Shown here one piece after another: positions 2,537 through 64,000 of a stretch of 64,000 nt of DNA. The stretch covers positions 41,346 to 105,345 of the forward strand of contig JADHYV010000064.1 of NCBI GenBank assembly GCA_027604705.1, written 5' to 3'. The DNA is from Allomyces arbusculus (lineage: Eukaryota > Blastocladiomycota > Blastocladiomycetes > Blastocladiales > Blastocladiaceae). A model generated the notes under the pieces. That model was not told the origin of the DNA. It saw only the letters and a program-made list of their open reading frames with translations, and searched no databases. Position numbers and translations under genes: made by a program. Position 1 is the first letter of the stretch. The number at the start of each line of letters is the position of its first letter.

Positions 2537-5092
2537 TCACATTCCAGCCTCCACCGACGCCCGCGGCCGACCATACCGCCATATTTCCACAGCCGCGCCG
2601 CGCATTGGCCCGAGACTCCGCACGACCGCGAGTCCCGTGCATGTTGGCGTGACGTACAGGACCGTGCCCGGCGAAAACACGTACCGTACGGGCCCGTCCT
2701 CGTCGCCGCCCTCCTCCTTCCTCGCGTCCATACTCTGCGCGAGCACATCGAGCACCCGTGCGTCGTCCCATAGCCAATCTTCCCCGCGCCGTGGCAGGAG
2801 AAGCATGTCCTGGGCCACAGCCTCGTCTATTGCACGCACCGCCGCCGTCGAACCGCCACTCACTGTCTCATTCTCCATTCCCCACGCCGGATTTGGCACC
2901 CCTGACCCGAGCACAAACTCGGTTGTCCTCGGCAACTCAACGCGCTCCACCAAACGCATCCCGGCGACATCCCAAACCTCCACCCGCACCCCGGGCCACG
3001 TCATGGCTGTATGACCGGCAGTACTAGACGTCGCAAACGGCGTTTGCACGGGCGACGCGCGCGAGACAATCACGAGCCGGTCCTGCCGTGTCCAGTGCAT
3101 CGACGCGACGCGGTACCAGGTGCCCTGCCGGGGCAGCCGTGGGAGGTGCGCAAGCGCGTGAAGTGCAGTCGGGCGGACGATGGATGAGAGGGCGGTGAGG
3201 GCCGCATCGGTCGTGTCGGCGGGGAAAAACGTGCGAAGGTAAGCGAGTTCAGTGGGCCGCAGGTCATACTGCGCGGCGAGCGCGATGTCATGGCCACACA
3301 TGTGCGCGAGGTACCGCTCCAGAACGTGTTCCCAGTCGTCAAGGAAATGGAACGCGCGCAGGAGCGGCTCACGCAAGAGAACCGAGACGGCAAAGAACCC
3401 GGCGCGAGTGACGTTGGTGAGCGCCGCGTGCAGGTCCGGTGTGACCTTGGTCTCCGCCGCGAGCCCCGAATCGTCGCGAGCAAACTGGACCGGCGGGCAA
3501 CAGGTCCCTTCGCGCGTGGACCCAACGAGAATCCGACCAAACAGCCGCCACATGCGGAAACTGCAGCAGGTGCCGCTCTCGGCAAAGTCGTACGGCTCGC
3601 CTTCGCTGTAGGTCGTGTGGTTCGGGATGATCCCGTACGGCTGCCACGCGACGAGCGTGACGGGTGCGGTTGGGTCGGTTACGTCGAAGGTGATGACGAC
3701 GAGACGCTGGCCAACGATCCGGTCGTCGCCCTGCTCGTTGACGACGACTTTGAGCAACTGCCGGCGCGGTTGCGTCGGGTGGGCGGGGTCAACTGCCCAC
3801 GGGTCCAGGTCAGTCACGGCAAACGGGTGCACGGCGTCCGGGTCGACGACAGAGTGCGTCAAACCGTGCTCGTAGGGTACCCACACCGCCGCGGCCTGCG
3901 TGATCCCGACATTGCTTGCATCGAGCCGTAGGCACTGACTGGACTCGATGTGCGGCGCCATTACGCCGCGCAAATCGTATACGGCCAAGATGCACGGCAT
4001 GGCAATGTGGCCCGGGTTATCCTCGTGGCGCCAGGGCACATCCGGGTCGGACTCAAACACCGTGGACCATGCGAGTGGGACACGGTAGAGAACGATGAGC
4101 CAGTCGTCGCAGCACGACGTGCCGAGGACATGGAAATGGTCAGCGTGCGCGATGTGGATGCACAGATTGGCCGTGGGTAGCTGGTACAGGTCGACGTGCG
4201 TCGCCGACTGCGTGCACACCCACCGCGACGCGGTCGCGCCAGTGGATTTGAAGAACGGGTCGCGCACCGTCATCAGGGCGCCGTCGTTGTCAATATCCTC
4301 GACAGGGTCCGGGGAGCCGTATATCAGGAATGGTTCTTGGGGTAAAGAGCCAGTGTCGGATGCTGAGGACAAGAATGGCTGGACTTGAAGCACTGATCGC
4401 GTCTGCCGCTCGTCCAAATGGCCTGCTACGTGACGATTCAATTCCCCGCGTTAGCGGCACCCTCTTTCTCTCAGCTCGGCGCGACAAAACGTACTTAACC
4501 GCGGCTCAAAAATGACGCAATTATCCGCGACCGCGACTAACGGCTCCCGCGTTTCCTCGCCCTCTTCCTCAATCGCCCCTGTGTGATCGCACACACCCCA
4601 GTACGGGCACCGCGCAGCCACTTCCCCGACGGGCACGTACTCCCGCACCGCATGCACCTGCTCGAGTCGAATCAGGTGCTCGTCCGGCACATTCGCCTCC
4701 GTGAGCCGGTCGGCAAACTCCTTGAGCCCACCCCAGTCGCGGTCATCGCGGAACGCCGCGACGAGCGCGAGCCACCGGTATCGCTGCCAAGTCGGCTTGC
4801 TTTCGAGCGGCGGGTCGTGACACTGCAGGCCCAGCTGCTTGTGGTATATGGCCGACCAGAGAATGGGCGCGCGCGAGTCCATGATGATAGAGCGCCATGT
4901 GCGACAGACGTGACTTGCACGGAACAGCGCGACAGGGTCGTCCGTCAGGTACGGGAAGATCAGAGCGAGAACATCGGTCAGGCAAACAGCCAGGTGCGCG
5001 GAGGGCGCCGCGGCATCGGCCGGATCAGTTGTTGGTGAGTCGGCCTGACAGCCGGCAGAGCATTTGAGAACGGGTGCGTCGGGTTCGTGCAT
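2537..5092 (-). CDS. F-box protein, family copy A (short-tail subfamily)
   Basis: Exons are 4495-5092 and 2537-4422, joined by a 72-nt phase-1 intron (GTACGT donor, GCTAAC branch, GCAG acceptor), giving about 827 aa. The start is the ATG before HEPDAPV; the reading frame opens slightly upstream only through a TTG. Residues about 35-90 are an F-box: LTDVLALIFPYL, then VCRTWRSIIMDSRAPILW. The intron follows EPRL, the position shared by every full family copy, and exon 2 opens with the family signature RSVLQVQPF. Family blocks follow in order: [41 protein letters not shown], the CC-x20-CC segment ending [34 protein letters not shown] and a final [15 protein letters not shown]. There is no basic/acidic tail, unlike copies B, F, G and I. 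The likely role is SCF substrate recognition; the C-terminal region is unassigned, possibly a beta-propeller. Confidence 0.85.
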
Positions 5093-5657
5093 GGCTGGTG
5101 TTCTTGACAGCGGTACAGGGCGCAAAGGGGATCAGACTCGTGTCGAATGCAGTCGCCGAGTTAGCCGATGAACCTTGGCCAGGAAAGAGCATGGGGTCCG
5201 ACGGCATGGTTGATCTTGAACCGTTCCGCGTCGTGCAGGCCATGGTGTCGAGTGCAGCGGCCCGTCGCCACCGTTGTCGTCGTCGCGGCGTTGGTGGCGT
5301 TGCAGCTGAACATGTCGCGTTTCAAGCTAAGTCGAGGAGCACCACGTCGAAGCAGACGTGGGATCGAGTCAAACCAGTTGACGTGGTCGGTGCTCTTTTC
5401 TGTCTGCAATGACGCGACCTGCTGTCTGTTATCTCGCCGCGAAACTCGCTCGGAACCGGCGAGTACTTTGGTCGCGGTGCGGACTGCCGATCTAGGACTT
5501 TGTCGAGCAAGGACCGTCCAGTCTAGGAATGTGAATGCGTCCTCGCCATGGATACGATCGATCTGACCTCAATCCTGCCATCGCAACACATTCCCTCCCT
5601 CCAACCTGCACAGCAACGCGGTTCGCTCCTTTGCATCGTCTCCGCCCACCCCCGTTT
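5093..5657. other. 5' flank of F-box copy A and 3' flank of the SLC35-like gene
   Basis: About 560 nt between two minus-strand genes. Only short overlapping ORFs of shadow type occur. No conserved feature was recognised; the copy A promoter must lie here. Confidence 0.45.
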
Positions 5658-15150: not shown

Positions 15151-18085
15151 ATGACGGCTACCAACGCTGGATTCTTACTTGCGACGAGCCCTCAGGCCTT
15201 GGCCGCAAGACTTGATACCCTCAACGATGCGCGCGTCGCGACTGTTCCTGTGCCTGCACCAGAGTCTCCACAGACTCACCACGTTGTTCTGATTCCTGAC
15301 GTGCTCGCTCATATTTTCAAGTACTTGACCAATGCCGTGCATCTTTTGCGAGCGAGCCGAGTCTGTCGTGTCTGGCGCGACACAATCATGGACTCGCACG
15401 CGCCGCTTCTCTGGCCTGCCGTGTATCACCGTTTGCCCGACTTGCGCTACTGCGACTCGCCGCTCGAGACGGGAAACATGACCTGGCGCGATTATCGCCG
15501 GCTAGTACTCATTTCCGAGATTCGGGACCGCGTGAATTGGCTCAACCTCAAGCAGCTCGGCGAGCGACTTGCCTCGGCTGGCGCCGTGAAGGGTGTTGAC
15601 GTGAACTGCGACGTTCCGCTCGAGAAGGTGCACATTGCGCGCCAGTACGTGCCCGTCGAGGCCGTGGTCGCGCAGTGCCCGCATTTCTTGGACGTGCCCG
15701 ATGGTGGCGCGCCGCTTGTTGCCGTCACAGAAAAATGTGTCGTGTTTGAGCCGCGACTGAGTACGTCGAATCGACCTGGCGCCATGCTTTTCCAATTCCA
15801 TCGTTCGTGAACCTGAATTAAGCTTGCCGCTTTTTGTAGCGGGAGAGCTGCGTGCTCAGCAGACCCGATCGTTCGTCCAGGTCCAGCCATTGTCGCCCTT
15901 TACCTCGTCTGCCATTCCTCCGCACCATGATGCGGTTCTCCTTCAGAGTCGCCCGGAATCTGTCGAAATAATCAGAAACGGCAATGTGGTTCCGAGCATC
16001 GACTCCTTCTTCAAGAGCGCGGGTGCGACGTCGACCAAATGGGCATTTACGCGGTCTGCGACGCGCGTGCGCCTGTACCCGCTCCTGACGGCCAACGCCA
16101 GCATTTGCGTTGCGCACCCGAAACGGCTCTCGATTCTCGACGTGTCGTGCTGTGATGATTGGCTCGTTGTGCTCTACCGTGTCCCTCTCGAATGGCCCCG
16201 ACATTTTGCGAGCGACCTGAGCGTCCCTTGGCGCCGCAACGACAATCCAGATCTCATGTCGACGCCGTGCATTCTGGCCGTGTACGACCTGCGCGCCGCC
16301 CAGATCCCGCGCGCCGAGCCGGACCGGTGCTTCTTGCTCAACGCCGCTGATGCTGGTGTCAAGGCAATTGGCGCCGTTTGGGTACCGTATCAGCACGGCC
16401 TGACGCATGCCGTCGTCGACCCGGATGCGCACCCGTTCCCTGTTCCGGAGACGGACCCATGGACGGTGAAGGAGCCCACTGACACTTCTCGTCGGCAGCT
16501 GCTCAAGATCATGGTCAACGAGCAGGGCGAGGACCGGATTCGCGGCCAGCGGCTCGTGGTCGTGTCGTTTGACGTGTCGATGCAGGCAACGCCCAAGCTC
16601 GTCGCATGGCAGCCGTACGGGATCGTACCCGAGCACCCGACCAAGCTACGCGGCGCTGAGCAAGACGAATCGTTTGCGGCGCACGGTCCGTGCTGCAGTT
16701 ACACGGCGTGGCGCCTATTCGGCCGCATTCTCGTCGGCACGCCGCTCGACCCAGTTTGTTGCCCGAGGCTTCAGTTTGCCCGCGACGATTCTGGGCTCGC
16801 ACCAGATGCGGTCATCGCGCCCGACTTCAAGGCCGTCCTGACGCAGATCACGCGCCGCGGATTCTTGACCGTGTCGGTCTTGATGCGCGAACCGCTGTTG
16901 CGCACATTCCATTTTAACGCCGGCGATCGCGCGAACGTCATGACTCGATATGTCGCGCAGCTTTGCGGTATGGATCACGAGCGTCTCGTGGAATTCGACC
17001 TGCGCCCGCTCGAGTCGGCTTACATTCAGGCCAATTTGGCCACGACCACGCGCCCAAACGTTGCGACACTCGCCGCGTGGTTGCCCGCTCTGCGCCCAGC
17101 ACCACTCCATGTCCGAGCAACGCTCCCGCGCGTCGTTCTTGCTCCGGGCCAGCTGACGTACCATGTAGCTAAGATGCATTGGACGCGTCGCGACCGGATC
17201 GTCGCTATTTCTCGCCCATCCGCGTCGGCTGCTCCGCTTCAGCAGCTTCGCAGTTTTTTTGGCAATCATGACGCCTTCATGCACCGCGGCTCGCGGATCG
17301 AGGTGATTGATGTCGCGGCGATGCGCATTGTCGCGGTCACGGACTTGCCGCCGACGACCGAGTTTCAGATCAATCACCGGCGGTTAAACCCGGCCTGGTA
17401 CGATCAATTTGAGGATGAGCCGTGGTACAAGCCGCTCGTCTATGAGAGGGGTCCGGTCATCCGCCGCGACCACTGGGATAATGCACTGATGTTGCCGGCG
17501 TGGAACTCGGAGCTCGACAAGGACGGCCCGCTGACCGACGAGTGGGTGCTCGATCCGGTCCGGATCGCGTGGAAACACAACTGGTCGGGTGCGACACGCC
17601 GGCGCGTGTGTGCGCCCGGGACCGTGCTGCACGTTGAGCCAACAGCCAAGGGGCTCGCAGTTGTGCGCAGTCTTGGGCCGATGCGTGGGTCGGTCGTCGA
17701 GCTGTGCACCTACTCGAATCAGCGCAAACCGAGTGCTGTCGTGACGCCGCCCAAGATTGCGCCGATTTCTCCTCCTCCTCCGTCACTTTCCTCTCCACCG
17801 CTCGACGACACTCGCGTCCCTGAGGTGGATCGCAACCAGGCGCGGTGGCAGGCAAAGGCCCAAGGTCGTCGCAGCAGCGTCCGTAGGATTGTCGCTGGCG
17901 ATGATCGCATGAGTGTAGCGATGCGTTCATTCAAGGGGACGAGACGGAACAGGGCGCCGGCGCTTGTCGTGGCGAGAGACGACGTTGAGGAGTGGAGACA
18001 TTTGACGCACGATGAGCTTGGGTGGGATGACGGGTGGGATGACGAGGATGACGAAGGTGTGGGCGGGCGAGTGGGAGGTAGATAG
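15151..18085 (+). CDS. F-box protein, family copy B (long-tail subfamily)
   Basis: Exons are 15151-15760 and 15840-18085, joined by a 79-nt phase-1 intron with a GTACGT donor; 951 aa. Residues about 50-95 are a clear F-box: [19 protein letters not shown], then [18 protein letters not shown]. The intron again follows EPRL, and exon 2 opens [12 protein letters not shown]-terminal blocks: [53 protein letters not shown], a CC-x20-CC segment around [42 protein letters not shown] and [16 protein letters not shown] with [15 protein letters not shown]. The tail has the basic block [14 protein letters not shown] and a strongly acidic end. It is the most complete, undamaged copy, and a good reference for the family. 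Expected to dock on Skp1 through the F-box; the substrate-binding C-terminal region has no assigned fold. Confidence 0.88.
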
Positions 18086-18440: not shown

Positions 18441-18909
18441 AAGCCGGCTATCGCCTGAAGCAGAGACGCGTGCAAAGCTGCTCCCGCACCATGCCGCGCT
18501 GCTTCCCTATGTGCTCGCTCATATTTTCAAGTTCTTGACCAATGCCGCGCGCCTGTTCGTTGCGAGTCACGTTTGCCGCGTCTGGCACGATACTACCATG
18601 GGCTCGTATGCAGTGATCCTCTGGCGCGCCGTTTACCATTGTTTGCAAGGGCTCTGGTACCACGACAAGCCACTGCTCGAGGAGGACCGAGCAATGACTT
18701 GTACCCAGTCCACCCCCAGCCTCCCCCACTGCTTGGCTTCATGCACTTGGTCCATGCAAGCGCAACCCTGTCTTGCTGCGTCGTCCAGCTCTCGGCGGAT
18801 CATCTTGCTTAACAGGATTACGAGCTGGTATTGTGGAGGTGTGCCAAAATTGGGAGATACGCTCGCTGCATCGTTTAGCCACAAGTGCGTTGATTTCGGC
18901 AAAAAATGA
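18441..18909 (+). pseudogene. Truncated F-box family copy C
   Basis: Homology to the family begins near [19 protein letters not shown] and continues through an intact-looking F-box (YVLAHIFKFLTNAARLF, VCRVWHDTTMGSY) to LEEDRAMT at about 18705. There it stops abruptly: the next residues are unrelated and the frame ends at 18909. The intron, linker and the whole 600-residue C-terminal region are missing. The closest visible relative is copy G, which shares [13 protein letters not shown] and [10 protein letters not shown]. This is a 3'-truncated duplicate lying directly downstream of copy B on the same strand. A short F-box-only protein could still be made, and would act as a Skp1 decoy if so, but I see no sign of selection for that. 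Confidence 0.7.
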
Positions 18910-26512: not shown

Positions 26513-26624
26513 GGTGGGATGGCCGTCGGTTGGTTGATGGTGCAGAGTGAGTCCTACGTGCAGCGCCACCGTTAGCGTTGCGCTGTGCCAAAAACCAAGT
26601 CACACCGCCGCCGCTCACATCATC

Positions 26625-36242: not shown

Positions 36243-36762
36243 CAGCAACGTTAATGACAATAGACCGCGGAGGGGAATGGTCGATGTGTTAGCTTTGAGC
36301 ATGACATGTCTGTAAAATGTTCACTTCCTGCATGAGGCAAACGTTTGCCACCCCGCGCAAGCGCTGATATCACCAACCGATGAACATCAACGGAACCGTT
36401 GCCACGGGCAATGTCCGTTCACAATTCGTCATGTTGGTGTGTGCGTCGGAAAAAGAGCATCGCCATTCACATTCAGAGCAGAGGGGCGCGGAGAGGGGTA
36501 CCTATTCTCTTTGAAGATTTCCTGGCAAGGATGAACTTGTCCTGGCGCAGGTGCCCGCGACGCGGTCCAGGGAAGCCGACGTGACTTTGCACACCAGAGC
36601 GTGCCATGTGCACCGCATCACGGTTCCCAGTATTGCACCGAGGGGCACGTTGTGCAGTTCTTGCAGGATGTGGAGCAGCAACATGAAGCGTCCCAGGCAA
36701 TTCGGTTGGACAAATAGTGAGAGGTGACTCGGGCGCATTTGCCCTGATGCATTAAACCCTTG
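36243..36762. other. Intergenic or unrecognisable decayed sequence between copies D and E
   Basis: About 520 nt without a supported gene. The missing N-terminal half of copy E would fall here, but I cannot recognise F-box residues in any frame. Confidence 0.35.
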
Positions 36763-37830
36763 TCGCTGCAGTTTCTCTACCTGGCGGATATTCGGTCGCA
36801 TTCTTGTCGGCACCCCGTACGGCGTTACGCAGCTCCAGTTTGCGCGTGACGATTGGGGCCTGGAAGCGGGTTCCGGCATTGCACCGGACCTGAAACATCT
36901 CCTGACGGTGTTCGTTCGCGCGGCACGCTTTCTTCGCTGTCGCGCGTCTCTTCTACGATCCTCTTCTCTACCCGCTCCCACACGACGTGAAATATGACGA
37001 AAACGAGGTCATTGAAGTGGAGGAAGGCCTTCTCGCCCCGGCGCGCTACGTTTGCAACATCACGCGGCTCTGGCGTGATGTCGACTCAAGTGGTTCATCT
37101 CCTTCTGAAATTGCCTTGATCCAGGACCGGTTTCGCGCTGCGAGCCTACCTGTTCCCACCACCGCAACCGTTGCGGCCTTATCGGAGTCTGTGCGGCCCG
37201 TGCCTTTGCTCATCCGCGCCTCACTTGAAGAGGATCCTGACTAACCCGATGAGAGTCAAGCCGGTCCGTCGTGATCGTCTTGTCCTGGTCTCAAGCGCGC
37301 CGCGCAGTAGTTCGCGCATATCGCGTTCATTCAGATTGGCCAATACAACGCATGGCGCGCGGATTGAAGTTCTTGACACGTCGGCAATGCAGATCGTCGC
37401 GTCGGCGACACTCTCTCCGACGACCTCCTCCCTCATCAATTCGTACACGGCAAATCCGGCCTGGTGGAGTCGCACAGAGCCGCCCCGGTCTGAGTCCAGT
37501 AATGGTGTCGCGCGACGCGCCCAGTTTCTACCTGAGCGCGGGGGCGTGCCGGGTTCGTGGGCCGTGGACTCGATTTTGCATGGATTGGAGGAAGAGCGGA
37601 ACCGCGAGATTGGGCGCATGCGCCGCGTCGTGCAGGCGCCCGGGACCGTGCTCGCCATTGATGCGACGAGCCGTGGGGTGATGCTCGTGCGATCGTTGGG
37701 GCCGACGCGCAGCGCGGTTGTCGAAGTGTGTGCGTACAACGGGCGGAATCTAGGGCCGGTGCCGGTGACGGTTCCACACGCGGATCAGGATGATAAAGCG
37801 ACGTTTCGGTCGCGTACTTGTCCGGGTGGA
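36763..37830 (+). pseudogene. Degenerate, 5'-truncated F-box family copy E
   Basis: Homology to copy D starts in the middle of the C-terminal region ([24 protein letters not shown] at about 36790-36870). It then shifts frame near 36925 and again around 37240-37260, and finishes in frame with STRRVVQ-like sequence and MLVRSLGPTRSAVVEV near 37680-37735. The F-box, the linker and the first 200 residues of the C-terminal region are absent, and the second cysteine pair of the CC-x20-CC motif is lost. The normal stop is missing, so the last frame runs on into the 3' end of gene K on the opposite strand. These lesions make it a clear pseudogene. The surviving parts are closer to D than to any other copy (NGRNLGPV versus DGRNREPG). 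Confidence 0.8.
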
Positions 37831-37890: not shown

Positions 37891-40812
37891 TCACACTCCT
37901 GGTCCCAATCCAGTCCCCGACGGTCCTCTTTCCACCGGATCCTCGTTCTTCCCGCCCTCTTCTTGCTCCTCTACCGCGTCAGTCTTAGCCCTGAACTCGC
38001 TCGACTTGGCCGACCGCGCCAGGACCACCATAGACCGCGATGTGACCGGCGACGGAGCGAGCAGACCTGACTTGACCGGGTGCGACATGAGCGCGACCGC
38101 GTCCATGGACGCGCTCCCATGCCGCAGGCTCCGCGCTGGCGAGGACAGTGGCGAAAGAGACAGCGCCGTCTCGGGCGGACTCGACGTTCCCCCACCGCGC
38201 GCGACCACAGACGACAGCGACAGTGGCCCGTTCGGGAGCCCATGCCCCGACGGCAGGTTCGGCAAGACTAGCGCCGACGACAATTTCGGCTGCGTGCTCG
38301 CATGCGCCAACAGATTGTGCTCGGAGCTGGTCGCGTCGGGGTAGTACTTAGCGAGCAAGTAAGTCGTGTCGGCGGCCTTGCCACGGCGCGGCTGCGCCTG
38401 CATCTGCACGTACATGCCGGCACTGTGCCCGAGCTTGCGCAGTCGCCGGCGCATCGCCGAGTCGTGCGCGAGATGCAGAAGCAGTCGCAGTGCCGGCTCA
38501 AACTCGTGCATGCGCGCGGCAGCGGCGGCACGCACGGCGCGGCCGACATTGGTCGGTGGAGTGGGCACGATGCCGGTGTGCGTGAGCGTTCCTGTTGTCA
38601 GGTCCGGGAGCGAATGTAGGGTGACAGAAGTCGGGCATCGCGGCCCCGTGGATGAACCCGAGGGGAGCAGCGATGTCGAGCTCGGCCGGTCCGTGGAGAG
38701 CGCCCCATCATCGGATGCTGTTGCGGCGTGGGTCGGCGACGGGCGGCGGCTCGACGAGCGGAAGGGACTTTCGGGACGCAAGACGCCGTCCGAGGGCGTC
38801 CTCGGCGTCGCCAGCGAGTGTGTTGGCGACGGGACCATCGCATCAATCGCGCGCAGCACGGCCTGCGACGAGTCTTGGTCCGTCGAGGTGCGTTGTTGCG
38901 CTCGTCGCCGACTCTGGGAACGAAGCAGGCCAAAGAAGGGGTCCTTGGCGGTCACCTTTGAGCGCTTGATCGGTACTTTTCGTTCGCGGTGGGCGTGCAC
39001 GCCGCTTTCCGAGTGGTCGATTGCGTGTTGAGCTTTCTGGCGCCGCCGGCACCACCCCGTCGTGGCGCGAATGCCGAGACAATCCCACTTGGCCACGGGC
39101 ACGGCCAAGACCACGACGAGCGTGCCGAGCGTCCCGGCAAATAGCGCGACAAACGATGAGTATTTGGTTTGCGCGAGGTACCGCTTCACAACCACGTGTC
39201 CGACGCGGTCGTTGAAAACGGGCGTGCGGACGTGGACTCCCGTTGCCGAGCGGGAAAGACACGCGGGCGGACTGGTCGAGTTGAGTGCCGTGAGCTGAAT
39301 CGTGTAGTTGGCTGGATGGTGGATCAGGCCGAGAACCAGGTACGAGAGCATCAGTTCCATGTCGTGCCGAGAAAAATCGACCGTGGCGGTGCGCAGGTAC
39401 TGGTCAGCGTCAAACAAGATCCCAAGCGCGCGCGTTGTCCACGACCATTGCACGGCCGTCGTCCACTCGGTGAGCAAGTTCTTGGCAAACTGCGGAACGA
39501 TCGGCACAGGCGTCATGGTATTGCGGAGCGGCGTCACGGTCACGCGCTCCACGTCGGCGAGCGACTTGCGCGGGTCATATTCCATGTCGAGCAGCACGTC
39601 GGACGGCACGGCCTTGGTGACGCTCACATCGAGCAGGCCAGCGTACATACCGCACTTGAGCGAGACGATCGTGTCATTTTGGATCGCCTGGCACTGGCCG
39701 CGGCGGCACCCGGGCGACGACACGTACTCGGGCCGCGCATTGACCAAGTCCAACGTGTCCTGCGACGGCCACCCGAGCAAAAAGAAGCCGCTCGGCACGA
39801 TATTGACGTCGTCGATGATCGTGACGAATCCCGGCGGCAGTGGGCCCAGCGGTGCGCTCGGCGGCGGCCAGGTCATGTTCTCGTTCCAGTTGTAGAGCGA
39901 GGAGCGGTCAGCGACCATGCCGCACGACACGCTCACGGCTAGCACCGTGGTGTTGTAGGCGTAGTAATTGTCGGGCGTGTGCGGGAGGATGAAGTAATAA
40001 GGGTGGCCGTTGAGCTCGAGGTCGGCAAAGTCATCGGCATACAGCCACGACGCGTTACGCGCTGCCTGCTCGCTGTCGAGAATGCCCGTCGCGTAGATTT
40101 CGCGGAGTAGCGTCGCAGCAGCCCCTTCGCTACCCGACGAAAACTGTTGATTGCCAGTTGGAGGGTCAGCGTTCTACGGATTCTCATCCCAAGCACCGCG
40201 AGCCTAATGGTACCTGGAACTGAGCATTGCCGGCTACCAAGTCGTCGACACAAGCGTCCCACCCAAACGGATTCCGGAAATTCACGGTGGGGATGACGCC
40301 CGTGCGCAACGTGCGTACTTCTTTGATCCCGTCCCATGCGAGCAGCGCCGAAAACGAGTGCCAGAGGAAAATCGAGGTCCACGTCGTGAGCGCCGTTGCA
40401 AGCAACATGAACCGCGTCGCGCCGACTTGCCGCCATCCACCGTTGCGCGACACGAGCTCGCGCACGATGCGACGCAGTAATCCAAGAACACCGTCGGCCC
40501 AAGCAGAAAACGACTACCGCTGGCTTGCGTCAGCTGTGATTCGAAGACCGAACGGCAAGAAACGGTGCAAGTGCGATTTACCATTTGCATAATCAGCCCG
40601 TCTTCGTGACAGCCGGAAATCACGATACGGAGAGCGTTGCGAGCGTGCAGGTCACGCAAAACGGCGCCGGTTGCAGTGGCGAGCAACGACATGCCGGCAG
40701 ATGAGTACTGCGCGCTTGGAAAGAGCCGCTCATAGCCGAATTCTGGCAGCACTTGATCGATGGTCAGGACGAGGCATGTAGAGACGATGACAAGCGTGGA
40801 CCACCAAATCAT
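37891..40812 (-). CDS. Orphan multi-pass membrane protein K (paralogue of J)
   Basis: Exons are 40582-40812, 40214-40513 and 37891-40143, with phase-0 introns of 68 and 70 nt at exactly the positions used by J; 927 aa. The start is the ATG of MIWWSTLVIV, matching the J start; the frame is open 40 codons earlier but that part has no counterpart. Features shared with J: DQVLPEFG after helix 1, LLATATGAVLRDLHARNALRI, SAWADGV opening exon 2, FLWHSFSALLAWDGIKEVR, a glycosylation-rich lumenal region with C-x-RG-x-CQ, TTAVQWSWTTRALGILFDADQYL, VVVKRYLAQTKYS, and in the tail MHEFEPALRLLLHLAHDSAM. The cytoplasmic tail is about 120 residues longer than in J and S/T/P-rich. No known domain is recognised. 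A role in signalling or adhesion is possible but not shown. Confidence 0.8.
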
Positions 40813-49183: not shown

Positions 49184-49667
49184 GATTGCGGCGAGCGGAT
49201 GGCGGCGCGCGGGTGGTCGCGGCTCGGCGGGCACTGTGCGGCAAGTCGGAGCGCGCGGCAGGGCGCGGAGAGTGCTCGTGGTTGACGGCGCCGTGGCCGG
49301 CCAGACTCTCGACGAAGACGCTGGTGCAGATGGTAGGGCCAGGAAGACGCGTCGTTGGTGCGGCTTGAAGAGTGAACCGTTCCATCGCAGCGTCCCTTGC
49401 TTCCACACGGGAGCGACAAGGGCAGGGACGCTTCGTCAAGCGCCACAATCTGCCTTGATTCCAACGTGACCGCGACCAGACGCTGTCAAACTCGCTTTCA
49501 TCCGGCTTTCCTCGTTCCCTGTGCTCTTCGACCGCGCCCTGCCCGCCAACTTCCCCAATTTTGCAGCGATCCAACTTGCCGCATACCGACCCAGCCCATC
49601 TGTCAAAGGAACAGCCCGCTGCTCAACCGCCGCAGACGCCTGAGATCCTAATTTGCTGCAGCCCACC
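49184..49667. promoter_or_regulatory. Divergent promoter region between the myotubularin gene and KAP3
   Basis: About 480 nt between the two presumed start codons. The KAP3 side is uncertain because its first exon is uncertain. No element stands out. Confidence 0.4.
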
Positions 49668-52663: not shown

Positions 52664-55590
52664 TCACTCGGCACCTTCCTCGTCGCTCTCTGCGCCTGAC
52701 TCTTCAGTGCCTGACTCTTCAGCGCCCGCCTCTTCAGCACCCCATCCCTCCCGCCCATCCCATCCAAACTCCTCCAACAGCTGCCGCCCCTCCTCCACCT
52801 CATTCCGCGGCACGAGCGCCGGCCATCTTCTACGCCCTCCACCCACAGACCGCGCGATCAGAGTCCCCCTGTTCACCCCCACCGCAACCGTCGTGCGCAC
52901 CACCGCGGCACGTCCCTGCGCCTTAGCACTCCAACGCGCCTGGTTCCGTTCCGAGCGCGACACTGGCCCCACAACAGCTGGAGCACGCACTGGTATCGAT
53001 CGGACAGGCCCGATCCTTGGCCCCGTCACGAACGCCGGCGGCGCTCGCATTTTCGAATACGTGCACAATTCGACCACCGCCCCACGCATCGGCCCCAAAC
53101 TTCGCACGATCGCGAGCCCCTTGGCCGTGGGCGCGACATGCAGGACGGTCCCCGGCGCATGCACGTGTCGCGTAGGCCGCCCGAGCCGTACCGGTCCCGG
53201 GGGCAACGACGCGTGCCGCAGCGGGTCGAGAATCCACGCGTCATTCAATGGGCCGTCCGGATCAGCGTCGGCCGGCGGCGGAAGCAACCGATTACGCCGC
53301 CACGCCATTTCCTCGGTGATGTTTCTGCTGCTCCCGGCCATGGGTGACGGCGAGGACAACGGGCCGTAGGTGCCGAGATCGTGCCAGCGCGGGTTCTCCA
53401 CCCAGTGCGCGCAGCTGATGCGGTACGTGGTGGTCGGCGGTAAGTCAGTGCGCCCAACGACGCGCATCCCCGCTGTGTCGATCACGTCGATCCGCGCGCC
53501 GGGGTCGGTCGTTGTGTCGAACCAGTAGGTGCGGTCGAATGAAGGATGCGGGGCGCGGTGCGGGCGGGATATGAGGACGAGACGGTCGCGGCGCGTCCAG
53601 TGCATGTCGACGACGTGGTAGGCGGGTTGGCCCGGGACGTGGTGCTGCCGCGGGAGCGTGGCGCGGACGGGGAGTGGGGTCGCGCGCATGTGGGTGGACC
53701 AGGCCGCCAAGGTCGCGTCGTTCGGACGGGTGGGGGCGGCGAATTGGGTGAGAATGAACTCGGCCTCGATGGTGCGGAGGTCGTACTGGGCCATAAGCGC
53801 GAGGTTCGAGCCGAAGAGGTGCGCCACGTACTGCGCCATGAGTTGAGCGCGGCAGGGAGCGTCAAAGTGGAACGCGCGCAGCAACGGCTCGCGCATCAAG
53901 AGCGACACGGCCAAGAAGCCGCGACGGGTGATCTGCGTCAGGACGGCCTTGAGATCGGGCGCGATGGTAGTGTCCGGTGCGAGCCCCGAATCGTCACGCG
54001 CAAACTGGAGCCGCGGGCAACAGACGGGATCGAGAGGCGTGCCGACGAGAATGCGGCCGAATAGGCGCCATGACGTGTAACTGCAGCATGGGCCGTGCGT
54101 CGCAAACGATTCGTCCTGCTCCGGGCCGCGCATCGATTCTGGATTTTCCGGAACGACGCCGTACGGCTGCCACGCGACGAGATCTGCCACGGGCATCGAA
54201 ACATCGAACGTCACGACCATGACCCGTTGGCCGCGAATACGGTCGTCACCTTGCTCGTTGACCATGACCTTGAGAAATTGCCGACCAGAAGCTTCATTGG
54301 GTACGCTCCCCATCCACGGGCCCGTGTCCGGAACGGGGAATGGGTGTGCGTTCGGGTCGACGACAGCATGAGTCAATCCATGCCGATACGGCACCCAGAC
54401 GGCGCCAGTTGCCTTGACGCCGACGTCAACAGCATTGAGCAGCAAGCACCGGTCCGGGTCGCAATCCGGGATCTGCACGCCACGCAAGTCATACGCGGCC
54501 AGAATGCACGGCATCGTCACGAGTTTCGGGTCGTCCCCTTCCCGCCACGGCACGCGCGGGCTCCACGCAAAGTCCATGGACCAGTCGAGTGGGACCTCGT
54601 GGAGCACGACGAGCCAGTCGTCGCTGCACGAAACGCCGAGAATCTGCAGTTTTTTCGGGTGCGCGACGCGGATGCACAGGCCGTTGACGGTTGGCAGCGG
54701 ATGCAGTCGGACGCAAGTCGCGGATTGCGCGTACATCCAGCGCGTTCTGGTCGCGCCGGCCGCGTGGAAGTAGGGATCGGATATTGTGTACCGGCCTCCA
54801 TTGTCGTTGACGCCCTCCACTGTCTCTGCGCCGCTGCCGATCACGATTGCGTCGTGCGGCGCCGAAAAACGAGAGAAGGAAGCCGTTGAAAAGGGCTGGA
54901 CGTGCAGGATCGACCGCTTCTGCTTGGTGACCGTGCAACCTGCTACATGTGCAAAGTATCCGTCTAAGTGACCAGAATCTTGGCTCGCAATTGCAATGAA
55001 TGTGTTTTCCACATACTCAAGCGCGGCTGAAAAATGATGGCACTCTCCGTCACCGTCAACAGCGGCTTCCCGCTGCCTTCAGCCACATTGGTGAGATGCG
55101 GGATCTCGGCAACAACGGCCTCGACAGGTACATACTTGCGCGCAATGTGCACCTCCTCGAGCGGGACCTCGGCCGGGTTCACCTTTTTCACAACACCGGA
55201 CGACGCGAGCCGCTTGCCGAGCTGCTTGACCTTGTGCCATTCGTGCGTGTCACGAACCGCGCGCAAGGCAAGTCGGCGATACTCTTGCCAGGTTACGGTG
55301 CCGTCGTCGAGCGCTGGGTCACGATACCGGATCCCCTGCTGCATGCGGTAAATGGACGGCCACAACAGTGGCGCATGCGAGTCCATGATCGTATCGCGCC
55401 AGACGCGGCAGACGTGACTCGAGCGCAGGAGATGGGCCGGGTTCGACAAGAAGCGGAACACATGTCCGAGCACGTCGTGTAAAAAGAGGGCATCGTGCGG
55501 CGCAGGAACGCGGTTCTTGCGCTTGGAATTTGGCGAGACTGCCGGGTCGTCGTGCTGAAGAGCCTCCTGCTCGTGGCGGTTGGAAGGCAT
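52664..55590 (-). CDS. F-box protein, family copy F (long-tail subfamily)
   Basis: Exons 55017-55590 and 52664-54939, joined by a 77-nt phase-1 intron (GTATGT donor, GTAGCAG acceptor) at the family position after QPRL; 949 aa. The F-box is at about 33-80: [19 protein letters not shown], then [18 protein letters not shown]. Exon 2 opens [13 protein letters not shown]-terminal blocks: [15 protein letters not shown] (the first cysteine pair of this block is C-S here), [33 protein letters not shown], the CC-x20-CC segment, [24 protein letters not shown] and [12 protein letters not shown] with [15 protein letters not shown]. The tail carries [13 protein letters not shown] and a long acidic end with EESG repeats. 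The stop lies 152 nt beyond the KAP3 stop, so the two genes converge closely. It is the first member of a four-copy minus-strand array. Confidence 0.88.
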
Positions 55591-56140: not shown

Positions 56141-59062
56141 TCAACACGGCTCATCTTCAACATGTTCTTCTTCGCCACTTTCTTCTTCTTCATCGCCCCA
56201 CTCGTACTCGTCCAAAACTTGCATTCCTTCCTCGACCTCATCCCTCGGCATCATCATCGGGCCCTTGATCCGACTCTTCCCCACACCGGGCCGTACCACC
56301 GCGACCAGTGCACCCTCTGCGACCACCGTTTGCACATTCGCACGACGCCCCTGGGCTTTGGCCTGCCAACGGGCCCGGTTCCGAGCCGTACGCGAGGCAC
56401 TCATTGAGCCCGTCGCCTGCAGGGAGTCCGGATCAACGATGCGCGCAATCCTTGGTAGTTTCACAGTCGCGGGCGGTGCGGGCGCCTTCGAGTAGGTGCA
56501 CAGCTCGACCACCGACCCGCGCATCGGCCCGAGACTGCGAACCATGGCCAAACCGTTTGCCGTAGGCGCAACGTGCAGTACCGTCCCGGGCGCGTACACA
56601 TTCCGCCTTGGGCTGAGCCGCCAACTTGGTCGGTAAGCGTGCGCAAGCGGGCCCAACACCCACGCATCGTTCAACGGACCGTCCGCGTCCGTGTCCACGC
56701 GCCACATGGGCAGGAACAGCGCGCGTCGCCAGAAACCCGACAGCGACTTGTCGCGCTCCCGAGTCTCGACTAGCGTGACCCCTATGGGCGGAGTGTCGCA
56801 CCACAGCGGGTTGTCGCTCCAAGGGAGATAGTAGGTCGGCGACGGCGGCAGGTCGGTCCTGACCACGATGCGCATCACGGCCACGTCCACAACCTCGATC
56901 CGGGTGCCGTGATTCAGCCAGGAACGGAGACCGGAAAATTGGTGAACATATCGAGCAACTGGTGGCGCAGATGGTGACGGGCGCGAGACAGCGACGAGCC
57001 GGTCGCGACGTGTCCAATGCAAGCTGGTGATGTGGTACGGTGGCTCGCCAGCGATGCGAGGGAGGCGCGGGAGAGTCGCTCGGACACGGAGCGGGGCTGG
57101 GCGCAGCGCGAGCGACCACGCGGCCAGCGCGGCGTTGGATGGGCGGTCGGACTTGGCCATGAGCTGAGTCGCAATATATGTCGACTCGAGCTGGCGCAGT
57201 TCGTACTGCGCGAGGAGCTCGTGGTCCATCCCGCAAATCTGAGCGACGTGCCGCGCCACCACGCTTTCACGGTCCCTGGCAGTGAAATGAAATGGGCGCA
57301 GCAGCGGCTCGCGCATCAAGACCGAAATGGCGTAGAACCCGCCACGCGTAATGTGCGTCAAGGCAGCCTTGAGGTCCGGTGCCATGACATCGTCGGCCGC
57401 GAGTCCCGAATCGTCACGCGCAAACTGGAGCCGCGGGCAGCACACTGGATCGAGCGGCGTGCCGACGAGAATGCGGCCGAATAGGCGCCACGACGTGTAA
57501 CTGCAGCACAGCCCGTGCGTCACAAACGACTCGCCACCGCGCATCTCGGTCGAATGCTCCGGCACGACGCCGTACGGCCGATACGCGACGAGCTCGGGCG
57601 TCGCCCACGACACGGCAAAAGTCACGACTACGACTCGATGGCCGCGGGTCCGGTCATTCCCCTGCTCATTGATCACAATCTTGAGCAGCTGCCGATGCGG
57701 CGACGACGCGTCGACGGGCTTGGCTACCGACCAAGGGTCTGGCTCCGAGACGGGGAACGGGTGCGCGTCCGGATCAACGATGGTATGCGTCAGGCCGTGT
57801 TGATACGGCACCCAAACGGCGCCAATCGCCCTGACACCAGCATCAACGGCGTTGATCAAAAAGCACCGGTCCGGCTCGGCGCGCGGAATCTGGACGGCGC
57901 GCAGGTCATACACAGCCAGAATGCATGGCGTGGCCATGAGCTTGGGATCGTCGCCATCACGCCACGGCACGCGCGGGTTGCGCACAAAGTCCATGGACCA
58001 GTCAAGTGGGACCTGGTAGAGCACGACAAGCCAGTCGTCGCAGCACGACATGCTTAGAATCTGCAGCTTTTTCGGATGCGCAACGCGAATGCACGCGTGA
58101 GCAGCAGGCTGCGCGTACAAATGAATGTGCGTCGCTGATTGCACAAACACCCATTTGGTTGACGTTGCGCCCGCGGCCTTGAAGAAGCAATCGTGCTCGG
58201 TGATTACGTCTCCGTGGTTGTCGATCTTTTCGACGGGCTCTGGGACACTGTGCAGCAAGAATGGCGCTCGTGTTGGGCCAGTGAACTTAACAGGCTGCGA
58301 CAAGGACTGAGCTTGGAGGAAAGAAGTAGCACGCTGAGGGCGCATATTGCCCGCTAAAATTGCGGCATGCGAGTTAGTTTTTGGCGTGTCAGTTATTGGC
58401 GCGTCAAACCGAGAGACCAAACCAGTATGACACTGCAACGTACAGATACGCGGCTCAAACACAACGAAACTGTCCGTCACGGACATGAACGGCTCCCCAT
58501 CCTCAGGCACGTCCAAAAAGTGTGGACACTGTGCGACCACGGCCTCGACAGGAACGTAATTGCGTGCGTCGTGAACGTCCTCGACCGGGATGTACAGCTC
58601 GCGATCCGCAGTCGTCTTCGCACCGGCCGATGCAAGACGCCGCCTGAGCTGCTTGAGCTTGTGCCAGTTGTGCTGGTCACGTACCTCGGCCACGAGCGCG
58701 AGCCGGCGACATTCTTGCCAGGACATTGGTCTGTCCTCCTCGAGCGGCTTGTCCTCGTAGCGTAGCCATTGCAAACGGCGGTAAACGGTGGGCCAGAGAA
58801 TCGGCGCGTGCGTGTCCATGATGGTATCGCGCCAGACGCGGCAGACGTGGCTCGCAGTGAACAGGTGCGCGGCATTGTTCAAATGCTTGAAAATATGAGC
58901 GAGCACGTCAGGAAGAAGCGCGGCTTGGTGTGGGAGCAGATTGGCGCGCGTCGTCGCTTGCTTCGTGCGAGGGACAGCTTGGTCGCTGATGGCGCCAGCA
59001 CGATGGCTGTCCTCGGCCGTGGTCGTGGAGGGTGCTCGTTGGTTGGCTTGCAGAGCTGTCAT
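56141..59062 (-). CDS. F-box protein, family copy G (long-tail subfamily, in-frame intron)
   Basis: The family intron is present at 58354-58443 (GTACGT donor, ACTAACTC branch, TTTTAG acceptor), giving exons 58444-59062 and 56141-58353 and 943 aa. This 90-nt intron has no stop in frame, so unspliced RNA would encode a 973-aa protein; alignment with copies A, B, D and F supports splicing (EPRIS-GNMRPQ). The F-box is at about 45-92: [37 protein letters not shown]. Blocks follow as in [50 protein letters not shown], the CC-x20-CC segment, [24 protein letters not shown] and [12 protein letters not shown] with [15 protein letters not shown]. The tail has [14 protein letters not shown] and an acidic end. 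A 229-nt stretch is identical to pseudogene H. Confidence 0.88.
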
Positions 59063-59984
59063 GGGTCTGGTCTTGCCGATGTGGAGGAGGGCAGCCAGGT
59101 TGCGAGGCAGAGGGTGCGACGCGGGAAGGAGACCTATATCAATGTGGTCGCATCTTGGTTACATAAATCGCCGTCGTTGCTGCTTGCTCTCGGCCGGGCG
59201 GGCGGGCTTCGGAGCAGAATGACTTGTCCCTGAGTCGGAAGGGGTGGGCAGGACGGCGAAGAGGGGCCAAAAGACTCAACACATGCGCCATGCCACCATT
59301 CCAGTTTTTGCAGAGGGACTGCTGTCTCCGTGGGTGAATGTGGCGCTGAAACGCCCAGGGGACGCTCCTTCATGGGATGTGGCCTGTTTGTGTGGCCATG
59401 GCCATGGCCAGCGTGTCCTTGGTTGAGAAGGCACAGGTGGGAAGATATTTCGGCATGGAAGACGCCAACGTGTCAGGTCGCCAAGACGTCGATGGCGACC
59501 CTTGCTGATTCTGCCTTGCCTGTCATTTTGCTGAACCATGAATAATGGAGTCCAGCCAATGCATCTGGCAGTCTCGCTCCTGCTGGTGCTCGTGCTTGCA
59601 AACCACCCTAATTGTTTGAATCCTCCGATCAACAGCGTTCTCTGGTGGTGGACAAGAGCATTGAGACGATTAAATTGCGCTGCGTCGCAAATCCATTTGC
59701 AATCCACCCCATCGACGCCTCCTCTATTTGCAACGTGGCCCGCAATTCCACCTCCGGTATCATCGCCATCGTTCACCCGCTCGTCATTTTCGCGTTTGAG
59801 CAGGTCGGTTCCACACGCGCTTGCGTCCATATCGTCCACTCCTCAATCGTCGACGCCCTCGTCATCTCCGTCATCCCATTCGAGCTTAAAGCCACCGCAC
59901 CTGGTTGCGAGCCGGGAGCGAGGCACTTGCGCCACCCGGTGGAAAACCCTCAGAATATGCATGCCAATCACGAGGAAGCGGTAC
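59063..59984. other. Spacer between copy G and pseudogene H
   Basis: About 920 nt without a supported gene. A weak TATA-like GATATAGG lies on the minus strand near 59131-59140, upstream of copy G. A GGCCATGGCCATGGCCA palindromic run lies near 59393-59409. The 3' remnant of pseudogene H fades into this stretch. Confidence 0.4.
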
Positions 59985-62165
59985 AATCTTGGGCGGCTTC
60001 ACATACGTGCGCGGAGCGGGCGCGCGCGAGTACGTGCACAGCTCGACGACTTACCCACGCATCGGTCCAAGACTGCGCACAACCGCGAGCCCCTTGATCG
60101 TCGGCTCAACGTGCACGACAGTACCCGGCACGTACACGCGCCGGCGCGTGCCGCTCCAGTCCTTTTTGAATTCGTTCCGCAGCGGATCGATGATCCACTC
60201 GTCGGTCAGCCGGCCGTCCTTGTCGAGGTCCGAGCCCCATGGCAACAGGAGCGCTTTAAGCCACCGTTCGTGATAGTTCTGGTCATTGACAAGCGGATTG
60301 TCCCACGGCAAATGCTTAACCTGGTCGCGCCACGCCGGGTGGTTGGCCAAGTGCTCGATCTTGAACTCGGTAATGGGCGGCAGGTCGGTGGCCGTCGAGC
60401 TCGTGTTCCATGCCGCAAAGCTGCGCAACATGCCGCGCCATGACAGTCGCGCGGTCATCAGCGTTGAAATGAAACGCGCGGAGCAGCGGCTCACGCATCA
60501 GAACCGACATGGCCAAGAACCCACGACGCGAAATGAGCGTCAGAGCAACCTTGAGGTCCGGTGCCATGACATCGTCGGCCGCGAGTCCCGAATCGTCACG
60601 CGCAAACTGGAGCCGCGGGCAGCACACTGGATCGAGCGGCGTGCCGACGAGAATGCGGCCGAATAGGCGCCACGACGTGTAACTGCAGCACAGCCCGTGC
60701 GTCACAAACGACTCGCCACCGCGCATCTCGGTCGAATGCTCCGGCACGACGCCGTACGGCCGATACGCGACGAGCTCAGGCGTCGCCCACGACACTGCAA
60801 ACGTGACGGCTACGAGCCAGTGGCCGCGAATCCGGTCGTCGCCCTGCTCATTCACCACAAACTTGATCAATTTCCGACGAGGTGCCACGTCAGATCTGTC
60901 GTCGCCCACGGGTCCGGCTCCGCGACGGGAAATAGGTGCGCGTTCGGATACACGACAAGTGAGCAAGACCGTGCGCGTCCAGCACCAACATGGCTGTGAC
61001 GGGCTTGACCATCGAGCATCCGGTATCGGTCCGAGTTGATGGGCGGGAGCGAGACGTTCCGCAGATTGTACATGGCCAGGATGGTCGGCGTCGCGATGTG
61101 GTCCGGCTCGTCGACTTCACTTCGCCAGGGCACGCGTGTTGCGAGCATAGTGGATGAGCCAGTCGAGTGGGACGCAGTAGAGCACGACGAGCCAGTCGCC
61201 GCAGCACGGCATGTCGAGAATAATGAGCTTTTTCGGGTGCGCGACGAGGATGCACGCGTTGGGGGCCGCCAACGGGTGCAGGCGTATGCTCGCCGCGGAA
61301 CGCCTAACAACCCATTTGGTCGAGGTCCCGCGCTTTCAAAGAAAGGATGACAAATGAGGTCACGTCGCCGTTGCGGTTAATATCCTCGACGCGTTCCAGC
61401 CCACTATGGAGCAAAGAGCGTCGCGGTCGTGCGGTAGGCTGGGAGAAGCAGCAGTCGATGCTGGCAGTGTGGGCTGGACTTGAACAGACGAGTCTTTTTG
61501 CTCCACGCGCAACTCGCCCGCTACAAATCCAAACCAATGTCGTGAGTTTGTAAAGAAAGGCAGGCCAGATTCCGTGCATGTTCTGCTTGACGTGCTCAGA
61601 CGCGGCTCAATTACGCCACACTTGTCCGTGATGGCCACGAACGGTTCGCCGCCGCCACGTATGTCGAGAAAATGCAGGCACTGCGCAACCACCGTCTTGA
61701 CGGGTGCGTGCTTGCGCGCAACAAATGTTTCCTCGAGCGGAAGGTCAACGGTCACGTCCACATCTTTCACGACGCCGGCCGCTGTAAGCCGCTTGCTGAG
61801 CTCTTTGAGCTCGAACCGATTGCTGCGGTCGCGAATCTCGGCAATCAGAGCGAGTTAGCGATAGTCGCGCCAGGTCATGAGAGCAAACTCGAGTGGAGTA
61901 TCGGGATATTGCCCGCAATCGTGAGCCCTTGCAGCAAATGGCGGTACGCGCCTGGCCAGAGAAGCAGTGCGTGCGAGTTCATGACCGTGTCGCGCCAGAC
62001 ACGGCAGACTTGACTCGTGCGCAGCAACTGTGCGGCATTGGTCAGGTTCTCGAAAATATGCGCGAGCACGTCGGGAAGCAGAGCGGCATGGTGCGGCAGT
62101 GACTTGGTACCCGGTACTTGCTCGAAAGAACCGCCCTCGATGGCACTGTGTCGATCTTCAGCCAT
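59985..62165 (-). pseudogene. F-box family copy H, multiply disrupted
   Basis: The copy begins like the others (ATG, then [19 protein letters not shown] and [18 protein letters not shown]), but is broken many times. There is a frameshift near 61900, an in-frame TAA at 61855-61857, and frameshifts around 61310-61450 and 60950-61250. An internal deletion near 60395 joins QLCGME directly to the late DLPP-TEFKI block, removing about 160 codons. A stop replaces the serine after RSLGPMRG. The conserved intron is recognisable at about 61500-61590, but its donor is GC rather than GT. Parts are very well preserved: 60549-60777 is identical to copy G 57367-57595, and 60397-60467 is nearly identical to copy I. 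It is therefore a recent mosaic pseudogene. No product is expected. Confidence 0.88.
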
Positions 62166-62786
62166 GGCCGTGGGGTGCTGGTCGGTCTTCTTGCTGGGAT
62201 TTCATAGTCGGAGAGCATTGGTCGCCGTCGTTCGTGAGCCGAGAACCGGGGGCTGTGGTGCAAACGCGAAAGTTGGATAGCCGTGAAGAAGTACCATATT
62301 TGTAGCGGCGAGGTTGACGCCGTTGGTGCCTGCTGCGGCGGCAACTTGTTGACAGGTGGGATACGCGTGCGCCTGACACAACGCCCATGTGCAACATGTC
62401 GCGGAACAATGACATGACATGTCTTTACTTGTATTTGAGTCGGAAAGTCAGGTTCAGTTCTGTCCTGCCCGGCAGATTACGTACCAAATTCGTTGGACCC
62501 ATACCATGGCCCAAACCATAACTTGGGATTCAGTGCATCCAAGAACAACACGATTTTTGTCGAAAAATGTGATATCTATCAGCGGCCCCTCGCAAGCCAA
62601 GGACGGGTATGAAACTAATGAATGCTTTGTTGCTGCCTTCTTGCCTTCTTGCAGCGTTTGAGCGACGATGGTCGTGGCAAAGAGAAGGAATGTTATTACG
62701 AGTGATCAAATGATTGAAAATACAGTCGTGCGTAACGCAACAAATTGAGGTAGCAAATCTCTCTCACGACCAGCAATCCCATAATT
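62166..62786. other. Spacer between pseudogene H and copy I
   Basis: About 620 nt, AT-richer, with no gene recognised. It would hold the former promoter of H and the 3' UTR of I. Confidence 0.4.
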
Positions 62787-64000
62787 TCATTCACAATTAT
62801 CTTGGCCCTGACCGTCCTCATTGCTGCCGCAAGCATCATCAGCTCCCCACTCGCCCTCGTCCCAATCGCTCCTGTCCTCTACGTCCTCATCTTCCCATCC
62901 AAAATCATCTTCCATCAGCTGTCTGCTTTCCACGATCTCATCCGTTTCCACAGCCAGCGCTGGAGCTCTATTTCGGCTGGCACCGACAGCAGAGCGTACC
63001 GTCGCACCCACACGATCCCCACCCGCGACAATCGTCTGAACGTCAGAGCGGCGACCCTGGGCTTTGGCCTGCCACCGCGCACGGTTACGATCGACACGCG
63101 AGACACCGGCGGCAGGTGGGGGTGCAGGAGCGGGAACCGGGCCAACCTTTGGCGGCGCCACCGTAACCAGTGGTGCGCGCGCACGCGAATACGTGCAAAG
63201 CTCGACGACGGACCCGCGCATCGGCCCAAGACTGCGCACGATCGCGAGTCCGTTTCCTGTGGGTTCCAAATGAATCACCGTGCCGGGTAAATAGATCCGT
63301 CGCCGAACTTCATCGGACCAATTCCAATTGGTGTTTAGCGCATTGCGCAGCGGATCGAGCACCCACTCGTCGGTCAGGGGCCCGTCCTTGTCAAGGTCCG
63401 ATTCCCACATGGGCAGCAGCAGCGCCTTCCGCCACTCGCCTTCGATAAACGTCGCGTCCGGCTCCCATGACGGCGGTTTCACCCATGGAGCATGATTCGC
63501 GTTGTCACGCCAGCCCAAGTTATTGGCCCAGTGCTGGATCTTGAACTCGGTCGTGGGCGGCAAGTCGACTTGCGCGACGATGCGCATCGCCGCGATATCG
63601 ACCACCTCGATCCGCGACCCGTGGCGCAGGAACGCATCGTGCTCGGCGTATCGAAGATCACGGTACCACGCGATTGGAGGGGCATGTGGGGAGGGGCGAG
63701 AAACAACGACGAGCCGGTCGCGGCGCGTCCAGTGCATTTTAGACACGCGGTATTGCGGCTGGTCCGGAACAGCAACAATTCGCGGCAGCGTGGCACGGAC
63801 ATGGAGCGGCGCAGGACGCAGCGCGAGCGACAACGCGGACAGTGTTGCTTCACTTGGGTAGTCGGATGCGGTCGCGAGCTGGGACGCAACAAACGCTTCC
63901 TCGGGCGGGTGCAAGTCGTACTTCGCGACGAGCTCGTGGTCCATGCCGCAAAGCTGCGCAACGTGCCGCGCCATGACAGTCGCGCGGTCATCAGCGTTGA
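62787..64000 (-). CDS. F-box protein family copy I, C-terminal part (cut by the window end)
   Basis: The frame is open through the right edge, so the F-box, intron and first half lie outside. The 400 visible residues contain [89 protein letters not shown] and [13 protein letters not shown]. Then come the long-subfamily tail ([14 protein letters not shown], then [16 protein letters not shown]) and an acidic D/E/G-rich end. No lesion is seen in the visible part. It is closest to copies B and G by eye, and its edge sequence matches pseudogene H. Confidence 0.8.

What the first reader, a model, noticed from the sequence alone, without database searches (positions are those of the whole stretch)
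2537..64000. Undescribed, rapidly expanding F-box family with a conserved 600-residue C-terminal region
Nine copies occur in 64 kb: A, B, D, F and G intact, I intact where visible, C and E partial, H decayed. All intact copies pair an N-terminal F-box with a long region I cannot match to WD40, Kelch, LRR or other usual F-box partners. Conserved blocks are [37 protein letters not shown]-x20-[52 protein letters not shown] beta-propeller fold is possible. Fast-expanding F-box families often recognise variable targets such as pathogen or self-incompatibility proteins; that part is inference.
Basis: partly seen in the sequence, partly recalled or inferred. Interest (0 to 1): 0.85.

Follow-up and report, generated by a model that had tools for sequence, protein, structure and literature searches.

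The report
Clustered fungal F-box family, unknown domain
A probably fungal genome carries a family of about twelve gene copies, probably nearly all in one cluster, that join a protein-destruction tag (F-box) to a large region that the searched databases do not recognise; it looks like a set of target receptors for protein degradation, interesting but built on a known plan.

Summary
The window has nine copies: A, B, D, F, G intact, I cut by the contig end, C, E, H decayed. Intact copies join an F-box to a ~600-residue region without Pfam, NCBIfam or PDB sequence match.

New here. (1) All seven intact genes found in the genome (five in the window) share one phase-1 intron, 69-106 nt, after F[E/Q]PR[L/I]. 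(2) The family is small: 12 loci detected, 11 probably in one cluster broken over three contigs; it gives 11 of 51 detected F-box hits. (3) It is not young: pairwise dS 0.95-1.64, dN/dS 0.29-0.52, no window of 1846 above 1.5, though dS is near saturation. (4) Copies exchange sequence: G and H share an exact 229-nt tract between 71-75%-identical flanks. (5) A membrane-protein family has three detected copies, all in this cluster.

Best reading: SCF substrate receptors whose C-terminal region is perhaps a divergent beta-propeller (low-confidence models), evolving by old duplication, decay and gene conversion. 'Rapidly expanding' and recognition of pathogens or self are not supported. Relatives in other fungi could not be searched.

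The parts
4495..5092 (-). copy A exon 1 with F-box
   Evidence: PF12937 32.4 bits
4426..4494 (-). copy A intron, phase 1, 69 nt (predicted)
   Evidence: GTACGT..AG; two other AG sites possible
2537..4425 (-). copy A exon 2, C-terminal region
15151..15760 (+). copy B exon 1 with F-box
   Evidence: PF12937 35.3 bits
15761..15839 (+). copy B intron, phase 1, 79 nt (predicted)
15840..18085 (+). copy B exon 2, C-terminal region
18451..18702 (+). copy C, F-box fragment
33677..34292 (+). copy D exon 1 with weak F-box (20.8 bits, under the cut-off of 24.3)
34293..34398 (+). copy D intron, phase 1, 106 nt (predicted)
34399..36242 (+). copy D exon 2, C-terminal region
36731..37788 (+). copy E, decayed, 3' pieces in three frames
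55017..55590 (-). copy F exon 1 with F-box
   Evidence: 30.4 bits
54943..55016 (-). copy F intron, phase 1, 74 nt (predicted)
52664..54942 (-). copy F exon 2, C-terminal region
58444..59062 (-). copy G exon 1 with F-box
   Evidence: PF12937 28.4 bits
58354..58443 (-). copy G intron, phase 1, 90 nt (predicted), open in frame
56141..58353 (-). copy G exon 2, C-terminal region
57367..57595 (-). 229-nt tract identical to copy H (read as gene conversion)
59868..62171 (-). copy H, decayed
60549..60777 (-). 229-nt tract identical to copy G
62787..63998 (-). copy I, C-terminal part of exon 2, cut by the contig end
63924..64000 (-). terminal 77-mer, identical to the end of contig C140
19215..21083 (-). 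membrane-protein paralogue M1; three detected copies in the genome, all in this cluster
37894..40173 (-). membrane-protein paralogue M2

Best explanation
A lineage-specific family of SCF substrate receptors. The N-terminal F-box would dock on the genome's one detected Skp1 and so on a cullin-1 ligase; the ~600-residue C-terminal region would bind the protein to be ubiquitinated. That region is perhaps a divergent beta-propeller with a helical insertion around and after the CC-x20-CC block, and a variable tail that is acidic in four of the seven intact copies. The genes arose by old duplication inside one cluster, some copies died, and gene conversion copies stretches between them. Shown: F-box, open frames, common predicted intron, tight family, decay, age, exact shared tracts. 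Inferred: splicing, one continuous cluster, conversion as the cause of the tracts, Skp1 binding, ubiquitination, fold, substrate binding.
For: F-box over the Pfam cut-off in A, B, F, G, K140 and, in the genome search, also in C, H, J35, N103 and O140. One Skp1 gene found. Seven intact copies keep one phase-1 intron position and frames of 819-951 aa with dN/dS 0.29-0.52 over 21 pairs, so they are maintained proteins. The C-terminal region is conserved with variable stretches between (80% mean pair identity at B 498-517, 9% at B 729-745), as expected of a scaffold with variable surfaces. Models of B and G, though poor, have strands before and after a helical middle; by recall of names most of the 50 PDB hits listed for the G model and many for the B model are propellers, with the ligase receptors DET1 and beta-TrCP among those of the B model. 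Exchange: 229-nt exact G/H tract; I and M140 identical over 77 nt, then at dS 1.14.
Against: Both models have low confidence and no Foldseek hit at E <= 0.001; the viral library gave scattered hits, few of them WD40 proteins by name; no internal sequence repeat was found; hhalign gives no support for DET1 (score 12.7 against a shuffled median of 17.1). D's F-box is under the cut-off. No expression, Skp1-binding or substrate data; cullin 1 was not looked for.
Confidence: 0.6

Rival explanations
1. The cluster is a self or non-self recognition system: F-box receptors with variable C-terminal regions clear partner-derived or foreign proteins, in the manner of plant S-locus F-box genes or nematode F-box antidotes, perhaps with the co-duplicated membrane protein M as partner.
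For: Clustered copies with exact shared tracts; M has 3 detected copies, all inside the cluster; linked F-box and partner genes in toxin-antidote and self-incompatibility systems are discussed in PMC12680543 (passages).
Against: Copies are old and under purifying selection, with no window over 1.5 of 1846 (weak because of saturation); M has no known function; one genome only, so no polymorphism data.
Confidence: 0.08
2. Housekeeping receptors under genomic drift: ordinary tandem copies with overlapping substrates, homogenised by conversion without any arms race.
For: dN/dS 0.29-0.52, old dS, conserved core, three decayed copies in the window.
Against: Seven intact copies at 38-58% protein identity suggest separate roles.
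Confidence: 0.25
3. F-box proteins that bind Skp1 but act outside SCF ubiquitination, e.g. as scaffolds or in trafficking.
For: Some F-box proteins do so (recalled); nothing here shows a ligase role.
Against: None specific from these calls; SCF action is the commoner role of F-box proteins (established knowledge).
Confidence: 0.1

Closest known systems
FBXW-type F-box proteins (beta-TrCP, FBXW7/Cdc4: F-box + WD40 propeller)
   Same: N-terminal F-box followed by a linker and a long, probably strand-rich C-terminal region; beta-TrCP/Skp1 chains are among the weak Foldseek hits of the B model (E about 1)
   Different: no WD40 match in Pfam in any of 7 members scanned with the limit at E 10 (HMMER's filters drop most matches above 0.1); no detectable internal repeat
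DET1 (CRL4 receptor; a propeller with one blade replaced by helices, PMC12808801, passages)
   Same: best Foldseek hit of the B model, 481 alignment columns, E 0.05; strands, then helices, then strands
   Different: no sequence support; no PF09737 match (one search found nothing in any genome, controls included, so it shows little); DET1 has no F-box (recalled)
Species-specific F-box clusters of Caenorhabditis (F-box + FBA2 or FTH)
   Same: tandem F-box copies joined to lineage-specific C-terminal regions (PMC8665587, passages)
   Different: 192 to 1296 genes per species there, with dN/dS peaks over 1.5 in the C-terminus of most pairs; 12 loci here and no such peak
Plant S-locus F-box (SLF) clusters
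   Same: clustered F-box genes with sequence exchange (recalled)
   Different: no known partner toxin and no polymorphism data here; no shared Pfam family in the C-terminal region

Membership tests
F-box proteins | F-box domain over the curated cut-off | tested here: met
   A, B, F, G, K140 over the cut-off of PF12937, and C, H, J35, N103, O140 in the genome search; D under it (20.8 of 24.3 bits)
F-box proteins | binds Skp1 in an SCF complex | not testable with these tools
   one Skp1 gene is present; no binding data
FBXW (F-box/WD40) | WD40 repeats recognised by profile | tested here: not met
FBXW-like by fold (beta-propeller) | propeller fold of the C-terminal region | tested here: inconclusive
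   pLDDT 37.3 and 42.5; many listed PDB hits are propellers, none at E <= 0.001; viral hits scattered
FBXL, Kelch, plant FBA-type F-box families | profile match of the C-terminal region in Pfam | tested here: not met
   none reported (limits E 1 and 10; filters drop most weak matches)
DET1 | sequence homology to DET1 | tested here: not met
   hhalign score under the median of 60 shuffles
Fast-evolving recognition F-box families (nematode, plant) | diversifying selection in the C-terminal region | tested here: inconclusive
   0 of 1846 windows over 1.5, but dS near saturation
S-locus or allorecognition cluster | polymorphic haplotypes and a linked partner | not testable with these tools
   one genome; a linked membrane family M exists

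The most novel reading that the evidence does not exclude
The C-terminal region is a new F-box-associated domain, and the ~90-kb cluster of F-box genes with its private membrane-protein family M is a recognition locus of a zoosporic fungus in which gene conversion shuffles receptor modules: a fungal counterpart of S-locus F-box clusters.
Probability: 0.07. Interest if true: 0.85.

Novelty: new variant of a known kind. Interest (0 to 1): 0.42.

Why it matters
Lineage-specific F-box families are well known in plants and nematodes. In seven searches of one open-access library, whose listings are capped, no listed paper described such a family in a zoosporic fungus. A ~600-residue conserved region that no searched profile recognises is a gap in the domain catalogue, and a small clustered family with visible exchange tracts is a tractable place to watch how ligase receptors diversify.

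Tried and rejected
Rejected or led nowhere. A weak match on contig C65 (E 0.01): the frame there had no hit to the family profile and looks by eye GTPase-like and Hint-like; dropped. Weak matches on C161 (E 0.045) and C102 (E 2.7): dropped as chance. BphC_D1 and Phage_sheath hits in Pfam (E 0.27 and 0.083): chance. Viral and prokaryote contigs: short patterns matched (14, 41 and 36 stretches), no relative confirmed. DET1 homology: attractive from Foldseek, not supported by sequence against 60 shuffles. Internal repeats: none. A dip of synonymous divergence at the most conserved block as a sign of conversion among all copies: not clear (four-fold differences there run from 4/20 to 10/14 by pair), so I rest conversion on the exact tracts. 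Trees: 0 of 8 and 0 of 6 inner branches starred for the F-box and C-terminal parts, 2 of 5 for the middle (D with K140, G with H). VIA-align was not available. The other F-box genes of the genome were not read.
Full report
WHAT IS THERE. The window lies at the end of contig C64 of a 25.9-Mb genome held in 197 contigs. Two neighbours speak for a flagellated fungus: an AreA-type GATA factor and a kinesin-associated protein (what they imply is recalled).

GENE STRUCTURE. In all seven intact genes found (A, B, D, F, G in the window; J35 on contig C35; K140 on C140) the F-box exon ends after FEPR[L/I] (FQPRL in F), and a phase-1 intron of 69-106 nt, GTACGT or GTATGT to AG, precedes exon 2. Other AG sites were possible in A, B, F and J35; I chose the one that gives the same joint in all. 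There are no RNA data. Proteins are 819-951 aa if the Met that I chose is the start. In G and K140 the intron is open in frame, which is why G looks like one long frame.

FAMILY SIZE. Loci found: the nine in the window, J35, K140, and contig-end pieces N103 (F-box exon, C103), O140 (F-box exon, C140 start) and M140 (C-terminal half, C140 end). With copy I the four contig-end pieces would make two genes, hence 12 loci: seven intact, two split by the assembly, three decayed. The smallest contigs that I looked at are 10.65 and 10.84 kb (C197, C196) and contig numbers seem to follow size, so smaller contigs are probably not held and the count is a lower bound. No convincing more distant relative was found in the genome. 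Of 51 F-box hits in the genome at E <= 0.01, 11 belong to this family.

ONE BROKEN CLUSTER (inferred). N103 and O140 end in the same exact 77-mer; I and M140 begin with another; each was found exactly at those two contig ends only, and elsewhere as diverged copies of 77-96% identity. This is what a k-mer assembly leaves at the edges of stretches shared by two genes. By the spacing in B and G the missing middle is about 1.4 kb. The only linear order that uses all four ends is C103 - C140 reversed - C64 reversed, which puts 11 of 12 loci in one cluster of roughly 90 kb; the other pairing would close C140 into a circle. Identity of the whole middle is not shown, only of its two edges.

SEQUENCE EXCHANGE. 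G and its decayed neighbour H share 229 exact nucleotides (57367-57595 and 60549-60777), with 85 of 120 and 90 of 120 identical sites on the two sides; at 77% identity the expected number of such runs is about 10 to the -23. I and M140 are identical over the 77-mer and then stand at dS 1.14, dN 0.30. A 43-nt exact run joins B to both G and H (expected 0.0007 at 73% identity over 2000 sites). I read these as gene conversion; an assembly error in the G/H tract is not excluded.

AGE AND SELECTION. Among the seven intact genes protein identity is 38-58%, dS 0.95-1.64 and dN/dS 0.29-0.52 over 21 pairs. Of 1846 windows of 45 codons none was counted with dN/dS over 1.5; windows with saturated dS were counted as not exceeding it. 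With dS near saturation this cannot exclude old or episodic positive selection, but it gives no sign of it. The trees are mostly unresolved; J35, outside the cluster, joins F in the C-terminal tree at 87/93, under the tool's star. So the family looks like an old radiation with turnover, not a recent burst.

THE C-TERMINAL REGION. Pfam: no family in 7 of 7 members scanned with the limit at E 10, save one chance hit. NCBIfam: none in 5 of 5 at E <= 1. PDB: none with the C-terminal profiles at E <= 10; with the F-box included only F-box proteins, at E 0.089-1.6. No relative confirmed in viral or prokaryote contigs. AlphaFold2 models of B exon 2 (7 rows) and of G (13 rows) have pLDDT 37.3 and 42.5. 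Foldseek gives nothing at E <= 0.001. Of 828 PDB hits at E <= 10 for the G model and 331 for the B model, 50 each are listed; by my recall of their names most of the first list and many of the second are propellers. The best hit of the B model is DET1 (E 0.05, 481 columns; chain named DET1), a propeller with a blade replaced by helices (PMC12808801, passages). Sequence comparison gives no support for kinship with DET1, and the viral library gave scattered hits. I hold the propeller at about even odds. The most conserved 20-column block is [20 protein letters not shown] (80% mean pair identity); the most variable inner block is near B 729-745 (9%). Four of seven tails are rich in acidic residues (B, F, G, K140).

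MECHANISM. Shown: F-box, maintained frames, tight family, exact shared tracts. Known background: F-box proteins are substrate receptors of SCF ligases; this genome has one detected Skp1. Inferred: docking on Skp1/Cul1, substrate binding by exon 2, degradation of targets. Targets are unknown.

NEIGHBOUR FAMILY. A probable membrane protein, M, has three detected copies in the genome: behind C and behind E, each on the strand opposite to its F-box neighbour, and on C140 behind M140, on the same strand (hydropathy for the two window copies). It matches no Pfam family in the two copies scanned. Linked F-box/partner pairs are known from toxin-antidote systems (PMC12680543, passages), which makes this the boldest reading, but nothing here tests it.

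LITERATURE. Ten searches of one open-access library were used; lists are capped (e.g. 10 of 192 papers). No listed paper described an F-box family of this kind in a zoosporic fungus. PMC10406608 (its one F-box mention is in a figure legend), PMC8665587, PMC12680543 and PMC12808801 were seen as passages only; all other papers as search listings.

Noticed in passing
19215-21083 (-), 37894-40173 (-), C140:22654-23676 (-): Probable membrane-protein family M without Pfam match in the two copies scanned; three detected copies in the genome, all beside this F-box family; 37-44% identical to M1 over its first 350-370 residues.
   Followed up: partly
L046 (C65:78500-83500): A 989-residue frame that by eye joins a GTPase-like region and coiled coils to a Hint-like C-terminal part; no hit to the F-box family profile.
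   Followed up: no
22952-24001 (+): DUF1275 protein (PF06912, E 7.6e-30).
   Followed up: no
48182-49435 (-): Myotubularin-related phosphatase with GRAM domain; the frame 46953-48389 beside it may be a further exon (not scanned).
   Followed up: no
51332-52183 (+): Kinesin-associated protein exon (PF05804), which suggests a flagellated organism.
   Followed up: no
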